A program made the translations under genes and the position numbers. DNA of 64,000 bases, taken from the NCBI GenBank assembly GCA_000247545.1, contig CP003316.1:653233-717232 (forward strand). The letters run 5' to 3'. The notes beneath the pieces were generated by a model. That model had not been told where the DNA came from, did not search any database, and worked only from the letters and a program-made list of their open reading frames with translations. How positions within the stretch are numbered: position 1 is the first letter of the stretch; each line of letters opens with the position of its first letter. This document shows positions 5,107-8,072 of this stretch, piece after piece. The DNA is from Pyrobaculum oguniense TE7. Its GTDB lineage: Archaea > Thermoproteota > Thermoprotei > Thermoproteales > Thermoproteaceae.

Positions 5107-6336
5107 TTACAAGAACTTCTCGTAGGCGTCGGAGTCGAGGAGGCCGTGGCCGGAGAGGTTGAACGCTATTACCGAGCCGCGTGGGAGCTTTTTTGCGAGG
5201 TCTAGCACTGCCCTTATCGCGTGTGCCGACTCCGGCGCCGGTACAATGCCCTCCGTCCTCGCGAAGAGCACCGCGGCTTTCATGACCTCCTCCTGGGGGT
5301 AGGAGAGCGGCTCCACTATCCCCAATTTCCGAAGCAAGGAGAGGGACGGCGCGGCGCCGTGGTACCGGAGGCCGGCCGCGTGGACGGGCGGCGGGACGTA
5401 GTCGTGGCCTAGGGTGTACATCTTGATCATGGGGAGGACCCCCACGGCGTCTGGGAAGTCGTATTTGTACTCCCCCTTTGTGAGCTTGGGGGCGGCTTCC
5501 GCCTCAACTGCGACGAACCTCGTCTTGTCGAAGCCCTCGCCCCTCAGCTTCATCCCGATCATGGGGTAGGTAAAGCCGGCGAAGTTCGACCCCCCGCCGA
5601 CGCAGGCCACGGCGGCGTCCGGCTCCTCCGGCAGTTGCCTAACCGCCTCTAGTCCTATGACGGTCTGGTGCATGAGCACGAACTCCAAGACGCTGCCCGG
5701 GAGGTAGCGCCTCTTCTCGCCGGATAGGACGTACTCCACCGCCTCCGATATTGCGATCCCCAGCGAGCCTGGGTGGTCCGGCCGGTAGTGCCTCCTCCCC
5801 GCCTCCGTCACTTCGCTGGGGCTGGGGTACACCGTCGCGCCGTAAGTCCTCATAAAGGTCAGCCTCTGCCTCTTTGAGTTGTAGGAGGAGCGGGTCATAA
5901 ACACCACGGCTCTTAGGCCGAAGAGAGCTGCCGCGAGGGAGACAGCCATGCCCCACTGCCCCGCCCCCGTCTCGGTGGCCACTTCCACCGCTCCGTCGGC
6001 CTTGGCGTAGTAGGCCTGTGCCAGGGCTGTGTTGAGCTTGTGGCTACCCACTGGGAGCACCCCCTCGTACTTGTAGTATATCCTCACCCCCGTGCCCAGA
6101 GCCCTCTCCAGCCCCTCGGCGCGGAGGAGGGGCGTCGGCCTACCAACACGCCGGTACGCGTCTCTAACCTCTTCTGGAATAGAAATCCAGCGCTCCGCAG
6201 AAAATTCTTGGTCTATAAGCGCGGATGGGAGTATTCTCGTAAGCAGGCCGATTCTACTCTCGCCCTCGTCTGGGTCTTTGGGGGGAGCCAAGACAGCGGG
6301 GAGGTCAGCGGCGATGTTGTACCACCTGTCTACCAC
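5107..6336 (-). CDS. trpB2: Tryptophan synthase beta chain, TrpB2 type
   Basis: A PLP enzyme of 409 residues that condenses indole or indole-derived substrate with serine. It belongs to the TrpB2 class rather than TrpB1: the Schiff-base lysine (K100) sits in LPVGSHKLNTA, the N-terminus is long (WYNIAADLP...), and VGGGSNFAGF near 233 and ETGAGQWG near 121-128 follow. TrpB2 proteins interact weakly or not at all with classic TrpA, and some prefer O-phosphoserine; which applies here cannot be told. The start is GTG at 6336; a nearby ATG is out of frame. No TrpB1 gene is seen, so this is probably the working beta chain. A degraded second trpB2 lies at 46183-46846. Confidence 0.9.
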   Translation of the reverse strand: MVDRWYNIAADLPAVLAPPKDPDEGESRIGLLTRILPSALIDQEFSAERWISIPEEVRDAYRRVGRPTPLLRAEGLERALGTGVRIYYKYEGVLPVGSHKLNTALAQAYYAKADGAVEVATETGAGQWGMAVSLAAALFGLRAVVFMTRSSYNSKRQRLTFMRTYGATVYPSPSEVTEAGRRHYRPDHPGSLGIAISEAVEYVLSGEKRRYLPGSVLEFVLMHQTVIGLEAVRQLPEEPDAAVACVGGGSNFAGFTYPMIGMKLRGEGFDKTRFVAVEAEAAPKLTKGEYKYDFPDAVGVLPMIKMYTLGHDYVPPPVHAAGLRYHGAAPSLSLLRKLGIVEPLSYPQEEVMKAAVLFARTEGIVPAPESAHAIRAVLDLAKKLPRGSVIAFNLSGHGLLDSDAYEKFL

Positions 6337-6363
6337 CCCGAAGCCATAGAAAAGGGAAACCTA

Positions 6364-6377
6364 CCCATTATAAAAAA
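6364..6377 (-). promoter_or_regulatory. TATA element of trpB2
   Basis: The minus strand carries an A/T-rich run reading TTTTTTATAATG about 30 bp above the GTG start of trpB2. This spacing fits a leaderless or nearly leaderless transcript and supports the GTG start. Confidence 0.5.
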
Positions 6378-6494: not shown

Positions 6495-6992
6495 CTATTC
6501 TTTTCTCTGTGCTAAGAGGTTGTCCAACGTAAGGAGAGCCGCCGGCGAGTCCTTTGCCAGCTTCACCTTAGCCAAAAGCTCAGCCGCCAACTTCTCCTCC
6601 TCTACCTGCTCGTCAACGAACCACTTGAGAAAAGACTCCGTGGCTTTGTCCCCCTTTGCCTTGGCCAAATCCACCAGTTCCCAAATCCTCTTGGTGTTCT
6701 CGACCTCTGCGTTGTAGAAATCCTCCACTGCTTCCAACACGCTACCCCAGCCAGACTTGGGCTTGGGGATGTCGTACAGCTCTACTTTCCACCCCCTCTC
6801 CACGAGGTGGTTGTAAAACCTCAGGGCGTGTTTAAGCTCTTCATTAGCTTGCACTTTGAAGAAGTGCGCAAACCCTCCTAGGCTCAGCCCGTCGAAATAC
6901 GCCGCCATGGAGAGGTAGAGGTAGGCATTTCGAAGCTCGTAGTTCAACTGCCTGTTGAGAGCCTCGACAAGTTCCTTATCGCTCCTCGACAT
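6495..6992 (-). CDS. ftn: Ferritin (internal start with its own promoter)
   Basis: From ATG at 6990-6992 the same frame encodes a full-length non-haem ferritin of 165 residues, which oxidises and stores iron in a protein shell. Ferroxidase ligands are visible: E in LNYELRNAYLY (about residue 19), EELKHA (about 51-55), an ENTKRIW helix, and VDEQVEEEK near 126-133. The length is that of an ordinary prokaryotic ferritin. On the minus strand a TATAAAAG box at 7013-7020 lies 21-28 bp above the ATG, the canonical distance for a leaderless archaeal mRNA. I infer that ferritin is made from this promoter even though no stop separates it from the upstream frame. Confidence 0.85.
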   Translation of the reverse strand: MSRSDKELVEALNRQLNYELRNAYLYLSMAAYFDGLSLGGFAHFFKVQANEELKHALRFYNHLVERGWKVELYDIPKPKSGWGSVLEAVEDFYNAEVENTKRIWELVDLAKAKGDKATESFLKWFVDEQVEEEKLAAELLAKVKLAKDSPAALLTLDNLLAQRKE

Positions 6993-7928
6993 TATCTCAT
7001 AAGGGGAATGGGCTTTTATACGTTGCCCCGGATGTGTCCTCCCGCTAAAAAGCTCGCCAAGCGGAGGCAGACGCCCAGATGCCTCAACAATGTCGCGGAC
7101 AGGTGACAGCGGAACTTCAAGTCTTTCAGCCGCCGAGATTAGCTCCCCGCAAACCCTCCGCTCCACCTCTCTCCTCACCTCATCCACAGCCGTGGGGTCG
7201 TACATCCGCTCCTTTAGATCCTCCCTGCCAATGACATCGCAGAACCTCCTCCAGAACTTCTCCTCCACCGCCCCCAGCGCCACCAATCCGCTGGCGCATC
7301 TATACACATTGTAGAAGGGGTATCTACCGTCTAGGGGGAGAGCCCCGAGATCTCTCAACGCGGCGAAGTTGAGCAGGTTGAGCATATACGCCACGTTCTC
7401 CATGGGTATCTCCACATAGCCGCGGCGCCCCGCGGCCACCGCCGCCGCGACGGCGAAGGCGGCCATGAGCCCGCTCGCCACGTCGACGCACTGCGGGATC
7501 GTGGGCTTTTCAGCGATTAGGCCGGCCAACCCAGCGAAGTTTATGTCGTGTCCAGGTAGGTCTACCTCCCTATACCCCACCAAGGCTATGTAGAAGACGT
7601 CGGAGTTGACTTCTTTCACCGCCTCATAGGAGATTCCCAGCCGCTCCGCCGTGCCCCTCCTAAAACTCGTCAACACAGCCCTAGCCGCCTTGGCCAAGTC
7701 CAGAACTCTGCCTCGATCCTCAGCTAGGCGGAGGTCGAGATATACCACTTCCTTCCCCTCGTTGAGCCTCTGGTAAAGCGTGGGGCTCAGCCTCCTTAAG
7801 GGGTCGCCGCCGGGCGGCTCCACCTTTACCACCCTGAACCCCCACTCCTTGAGCAACCTCCCAGCGAGGGGGCCCGGGTAGAGCTGCGCAATTTCTAAAA
7901 CAACCGCCACTGTGTGTACACCTCGCAT
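6495..7928 (-). CDS. Family III CoA-transferase reading frame continuous with ferritin
   Basis: One open frame of 477 codons. Residues 1 to about 312 are a CaiB/BaiF family III CoA-transferase (YPGPLAGRLLKEWG, then VVKVEPPGGDP, YLDLR and a GHDINFAGLAGL segment). This is shorter than the usual ~400 aa and the expected family C-terminus is missing. Without any stop codon the frame then runs into a complete 165-residue ferritin (6495-6992). Bifunctional proteins of this kind are not known to me. The ferritin part has its own TATA box, so a separate product is likely. A TATA box directly above ATG 7928 suggests the CoA-transferase may really start at GTG 7910. The substrate is unknown. Confidence 0.7.
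   Translation of the reverse strand: MRGVHTVAVVLEIAQLYPGPLAGRLLKEWGFRVVKVEPPGGDPLRRLSPTLYQRLNEGKEVVYLDLRLAEDRGRVLDLAKAARAVLTSFRRGTAERLGISYEAVKEVNSDVFYIALVGYREVDLPGHDINFAGLAGLIAEKPTIPQCVDVASGLMAAFAVAAAVAAGRRGYVEIPMENVAYMLNLLNFAALRDLGALPLDGRYPFYNVYRCASGLVALGAVEEKFWRRFCDVIGREDLKERMYDPTAVDEVRREVERRVCGELISAAERLEVPLSPVRDIVEASGRLPPLGELFSGRTHPGQRIKAHSPYEIMSRSDKELVEALNRQLNYELRNAYLYLSMAAYFDGLSLGGFAHFFKVQANEELKHALRFYNHLVERGWKVELYDIPKPKSGWGSVLEAVEDFYNAEVENTKRIWELVDLAKAKGDKATESFLKWFVDEQVEEEKLAAELLAKVKLAKDSPAALLTLDNLLAQRKE
7013..7020 (-). promoter_or_regulatory. Internal TATA box of the ferritin gene
   Basis: TATAAAAG on the minus strand lies inside the last codons of the CoA-transferase-like frame and 21-28 bp above the ferritin ATG. 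Its position is the main evidence that ferritin has an independent transcript. Confidence 0.6.
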
Positions 7929-8072
7929 TTATAAAAATATGTAGAGCCCAGCCGACGTTATATAGCGACGAAGCGGACAACGCGAGGAACACGCACCCCG
8001 CCTTCGTTCCGCGTAGTTCCGCACGTAGTTTCTAGGGAAGTCTATAAACCCTCCCCCAAGTATCTCAGATAC

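What the first reader, a model, noticed from the sequence alone, without database searches (positions are those of the whole stretch)
6495..7928. CoA-transferase frame fused without a stop to a complete ferritin that keeps its own TATA box
A 477-codon frame joins a short CaiB-type CoA-transferase to a full-length 165-aa ferritin. The canonical TATAAAAG box lies 21-28 bp above an in-frame ferritin ATG. So one DNA frame may yield both a ferritin and a fusion protein, or the CoA-transferase lost its stop and C-terminus and is decaying onto the ferritin gene. The promoter of one gene would be inside the codons of another.
Basis: partly seen in the sequence, partly recalled or inferred. Interest (0 to 1): 0.72.

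Follow-up and report, generated by a model that had tools for sequence, protein, structure and literature searches.

The report
Two archaeal genes sharing one frame
In a hot-spring archaeon, a complete short CoA-transferase gene runs without a stop codon into a newly acquired iron-storage (ferritin) gene that has its own promoter; this looks like an ordinary pair of neighbouring genes that lost one stop codon (or a one-base sequencing slip), not a designed two-in-one protein.

Summary
Minus-strand frame 7928-6495 is open for 477 codons and joins a CoA-transferase family III domain to a full 165-aa ferritin. A TATAAAAG box lies 28-21 nt before the ferritin ATG (6992). The genome is Pyrobaculum oguniense TE7. 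The box fits the genome's own leaderless-promoter pattern (0.6% of internal ATGs score as well), so an independent ferritin promoter is likely. The CoA-transferase is not truncated or decaying: relatives are equally short and end in their own stop, its active-site residues are kept, and it evolves no faster than the P. aerophilum copy. Its real start is probably GTG 7910, with a strong promoter. Ferritin occurs in none of the other sampled Thermoproteales; it resembles Desulfurococcales-type ferritins (66-76%), so it was probably gained laterally. The missing stop has a one-base explanation: a T5 run at 7051-7047; one more T gives TAG where relatives end. The genome was sequenced by 454 and shows homopolymer frameshifts elsewhere. 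Promoters inside upstream codons are common here (about 11% of tight pairs), and about 10% of tight pairs would fuse in frame if a stop were lost. Most likely: two separate genes, with incidental fusion.

The parts
7047..7910 (-). short CoA-transferase family III (CaiB/racemase-like) gene, probable leaderless GTG start at 7910 to the homologous C-terminus at LGELF
   Evidence: Pfam CoA_transf_3; eight intact relatives of the same length; promoter score at GTG 7910
7928..7943 (-). promoter box (TATTTTTATAAA) of the CoA-transferase gene; ATG 7928 of the longest ORF overlaps its end
   Evidence: score 12.06, reached by 3% of true starts and 0.06% of internal ATGs
7047..7051 (-). T5 run, GAG CTT TTT AGC; a T6 here would read GAG CTT TTT TAG, a stop at the homologous end of the CoA-transferase
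   Evidence: chance of a +1 stop at such a run 0.4%, of a +/-1 stop 4%
6993..7046 (-). 18-codon linker without homology to relatives' tails; predicted disordered; holds the ferritin promoter
   Evidence: tail comparisons; pLDDT below 50 at residues 274-309 of the 471-aa model
7013..7020 (-). TATAAAAG box of the ferritin gene, -28 to -21 from its ATG, with AA at -32/-31
   Evidence: genome-derived promoter profile, score 6.46
6495..6992 (-). complete 165-aa archaeal non-haem ferritin, ATG start
   Evidence: Pfam and PDB matches, fold match to Archaeoglobus and Pyrococcus ferritins, relatives

Best explanation
These are two separate working genes. The upstream gene is a naturally short CoA-transferase/racemase-like enzyme, transcribed leaderless from GTG 7910. 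The downstream gene is a laterally acquired ferritin, transcribed leaderless from its own TATA box at 7020-7013, which lies in the tail of the upstream gene. The open frame between them is incidental. It most simply reflects one T missing from a T run at 7051-7047, either a real slippage deletion or a 454 homopolymer under-call. If the deletion is real, transcripts from the CoA-transferase promoter yield a CoA-transferase-ferritin read-through product, while most ferritin comes from its own promoter. Shown: the frame, domain completeness, promoter statistics, the phylogenetic distribution and the T-run position. Inferred: transcription, the protein products, and that the T run is the cause.
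For: Relatives with the same short length and their own stops. No ferritin in 18 other Thermoproteaceae or the rest of the order, but ferritin at 66-72% in one other family of the class and 73-76% in Desulfurococcales MAGs. In relatives the CoA-transferase sits in a thioesterase / CoA-transferase / acyl-CoA synthetase cluster, and in the P. aerophilum-type genome G001 the trp genes lie about 4.6 kb downstream. Both genes have promoters on the genome's leaderless pattern. T5-to-T6 gives TAG at the homologous end, a coincidence of 0.4-4%. An acyl-CoA synthetase in the same assembly is broken at a G12 run and an A4 run while its pieces stay 67-81% identical. Sequencing was 454 plus SOLiD (PMC3558965). 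About 10% of tight same-strand pairs would fuse in frame if a stop were lost (16 of 156).
Against: The genome paper reports 59x coverage above Q40 for 99.95% of bases, and a T5 run is not long for 454, so the base call may be right. No second strain was available to show the T6 form. The ferritin box scores below the median of true starts (6.46 against 7.58).
Confidence: 0.77

Rival explanations
1. A genuine functional fusion: the cell makes both free ferritin and a CoA-transferase-ferritin chain, which co-assemble so that the enzyme is displayed on the outside of the ferritin cage (ferritin N-termini face outward, established knowledge).
For: The frame is open in the deposited sequence. Both domains are complete and the model gives two folded domains joined by a flexible linker. 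An internal promoter would supply free ferritin.
Against: No other genome searched holds this fusion. The linker has no homology or visible conservation. Ferritin and this enzyme have no known functional link. A one-base event explains it.
Confidence: 0.11
2. The CoA-transferase has lost its stop and C-terminus and is decaying onto the ferritin gene.
For: The gene has lost its operon partners at this locus.
Against: Length is that of its relatives. The catalytic His, Asp and Glu positions known from alpha-methylacyl-CoA racemase align with conserved residues. There is no rate acceleration (chi-square at most 2.4 in seven tests) and no internal stop. Its promoter is among the strongest sampled.
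Confidence: 0.06
3. The box is not a promoter; ferritin is made only as part of the fusion or by internal initiation on the long mRNA.
For: The score is below the median of true starts. Some internal ATGs score as high by chance (0.56%).
Against: Position and sequence fit the genome's leaderless pattern, and no Shine-Dalgarno signal is seen in the profile.
Confidence: 0.06

Closest known systems
CoA-transferase family III (Pfam PF02515), alpha-methylacyl-CoA racemase-like members (MCR 1x74, FAR 2g04)
   Same: Domain match, GHDIN motif and the aligned Asp and Glu positions
   Different: About 290 aa instead of 360-400, like all close relatives in Thermoproteaceae; substrate unknown
Archaeal non-haem ferritins (Archaeoglobus fulgidus 1s3q/3kx9, Pyrococcus furiosus 2x17)
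   Same: Full length, 49-51% identity, fold match rmsd 1.0-1.4 A
   Different: Its frame is open upstream into another gene; single occurrence in the Thermoproteales sampled
Archaeal leaderless genes with TATA boxes inside the upstream gene
   Same: Box position -28 to -21; 11 of 97 tight same-strand genes here show a similar or better box in upstream codons
   Different: Here the two genes also share a reading frame with no stop between

Membership tests
CoA-transferase family III | Pfam PF02515 domain match above cut-off | tested here: met
   152 bits against a cut-off of 23.3, profile 5-317 of 366
CoA-transferase family III | Active-site Asp, and the racemase-type His in GHDIN | tested here: met
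   Aligned with FAR 2g04 and conserved in relatives
CoA-transferase family III | CoA-transfer or racemase activity | not testable with these tools
   No assay
Non-haem ferritin | Ferritin-like four-helix bundle, full length | tested here: met
   Pfam PF00210, 2-141 of 142; fold match
Non-haem ferritin | Ferroxidase-centre Glu and His residues (Glu of ELRNAY, Glu and His of EELKHA, Glu of NAEVEN, Glu/Gln of DEQVEEE) | tested here: met
   Motifs aligned with archaeal and bacterial ferritins
Non-haem ferritin | 24-subunit cage and iron uptake | not testable with these tools
   No biochemistry
Leaderless archaeal promoter | BRE/TATA at about -32 to -20 from the start codon | tested here: met
Leaderless archaeal promoter | Mapped transcript 5' end at the start codon | not testable with these tools
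   No RNA data held
Conserved gene fusion (Rosetta-stone type) | Fusion present in more than one genome or under selection in the linker | tested here: not met
   Not found in 18 other Thermoproteaceae, 81 class genomes or the 80 loci kept from genome contigs

The most novel reading that the evidence does not exclude
A single DNA frame yields both free ferritin (from an internal promoter) and an enzyme-ferritin fusion, giving a natural ferritin cage with CoA-transferase units on its surface.
Probability: 0.08. Interest if true: 0.65.

Novelty: new member of a known kind. Interest (0 to 1): 0.2.

Why it matters
As ordinary biology it records a lateral gain of ferritin by one Pyrobaculum and a promoter embedded in the upstream gene, both common kinds of event. 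It is also a caution: in 454-era genomes a stop codon next to a homopolymer can vanish and create a false fusion in databases. Only if the fusion were confirmed at protein level would it be notable.

Tried and rejected
Looked for other CoA-transferase-ferritin fusions: hits whose alignments ran upstream of ferritin (L011, L024, L036, L037) extend into unrelated sequence, one with a stop. Compared the linker in three frames with relatives' C-terminal tails: only one of 27 comparisons had a shuffle frequency below 0.05 (0.018), as expected by chance. P. arsenaticum, about 96% identical and decisive, is not in the searchable genome sets; literature on its ferritin was not found. A first mixed alignment (A1) misplaced CoA-transferase C-termini and was not used for folding; A2 was used instead. 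I looked for published evidence of homopolymer slippage in Pyrobaculum and found nothing usable in the held library.

Full report
What is there. The minus-strand frame 7928-6495 is open for 477 codons. Pfam places CoA_transf_3 at residues 9-283 and Ferritin at 322-457. The ferritin Met is residue 313 at 6992, and TATAAAAG lies at 7020-7013. The genome has contigs of 2,436,033 and 16,887 bp, which matches Pyrobaculum oguniense TE7 (PMC3558965).

The CoA-transferase half is complete. Thermoproteaceae relatives are all of this short type. Counting from the LAGR motif to the stop, the eight intact relatives have 275-304 aa; here it is 274 aa to the end of LGELF and 292 aa to the residue before the ferritin Met. 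The GHDIN histidine and the Asp and Glu positions used by alpha-methylacyl-CoA racemases are aligned and conserved (the roles of these residues are established knowledge). Relative-rate tests against the P. aerophilum-type genome (G001) with seven outgroups give chi-square values of at most 2.4. So truncation and decay are not supported. The longest-ORF ATG (7928) lies in the gene's own TATA box; GTG 7910 fits the genome's promoter pattern far better.

The ferritin half is a newcomer. Among 81 genomes of the class, ferritin of this kind occurs in this genome and in seven genomes of one other family (66-72% identity). Desulfurococcales MAGs reach 73-76%. None of the other Thermoproteaceae has it. 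In relatives the CoA-transferase is flanked by a thioesterase and an acyl-CoA synthetase. In G001 the trp genes lie about 4.6 kb downstream of the CoA-transferase, with acyl-CoA genes and an ABC ATPase between. In the window ferritin occupies that interval directly. Lateral gain is an inference from this distribution.

Promoters. From 189 genes in 464 kb of this genome a clear profile emerges: A-rich at -32 to -29, TTTAAA/TTTATA at -27 to -20, and no Shine-Dalgarno signal, the leaderless pattern. The ferritin ATG scores 6.46, reached by 65% of true starts and 0.56% of 1602 internal ATGs. A promoter inside upstream codons is ordinary here: 11 of 97 tight same-strand genes have an equal or better box in the upstream gene.

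Why there is no stop. A T5 run sits at 7051-7047 in GAG CTT TTT AGC. With six Ts it would read GAG CTT TTT TAG, ending the protein at LGELF, where relatives end. The chance that adding a base to a run of five or more makes a stop at that run is 0.4% in comparable stretches; for either direction it is 4%. The genome was assembled from 454 reads with SOLiD scaffolding. An acyl-CoA synthetase elsewhere in the assembly (C1:1734224-1735487) is split at a G12 run and an A4 run with otherwise well-conserved pieces. So either a real slippage or an under-call is a sufficient cause; the data cannot separate them. If a stop is lost, about 10% of tight pairs here would fuse in frame (16 of 156), so the fusion needs no special explanation.

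If the deletion is real. A 471-aa product would have two folded parts joined by a disordered stretch: residues 274-309 have pLDDT below 50, while the ferritin helices are mostly at 85-94. The parts match family III CoA-transferases and archaeal ferritins. Such a chain could enter a ferritin cage through its ferritin part. This is possible but unsupported: no other genome searched has the fusion and the linker shows no homology.

Verdict. Most likely two separately promoted genes with an incidental, single-event loss (or apparent loss) of a stop codon. Interest is low unless resequencing and proteomics show a real and abundant fusion.

Noticed in passing
G000:C1:1734224-1735487 (outside the window; L134, L135, L137): An acyl-CoA synthetase homologue is split across three frames at a G12 run and an A4 run, pieces 67-81% identical to the P. 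aerophilum-type copy; real slippage or 454 errors.
   Followed up: partly
7910-7943: The true CoA-transferase start is probably GTG 7910; automatic longest-ORF calling would take ATG 7928, which overlaps the TATA box.
   Followed up: yes
6336-6370: trpB-like ORF start GTG 6336 has no box at the usual distance; a TATA-like stretch lies roughly 10 nt too far upstream, so it may have a short leader or another start.
   Followed up: no
6495-7928 compared with L113-L121: The thioesterase / CoA-transferase / acyl-CoA synthetase cluster of relatives is not kept at this locus in P. oguniense; homologues of the other genes lie elsewhere (25.5 kb; 1732-1735 kb).
   Followed up: partly
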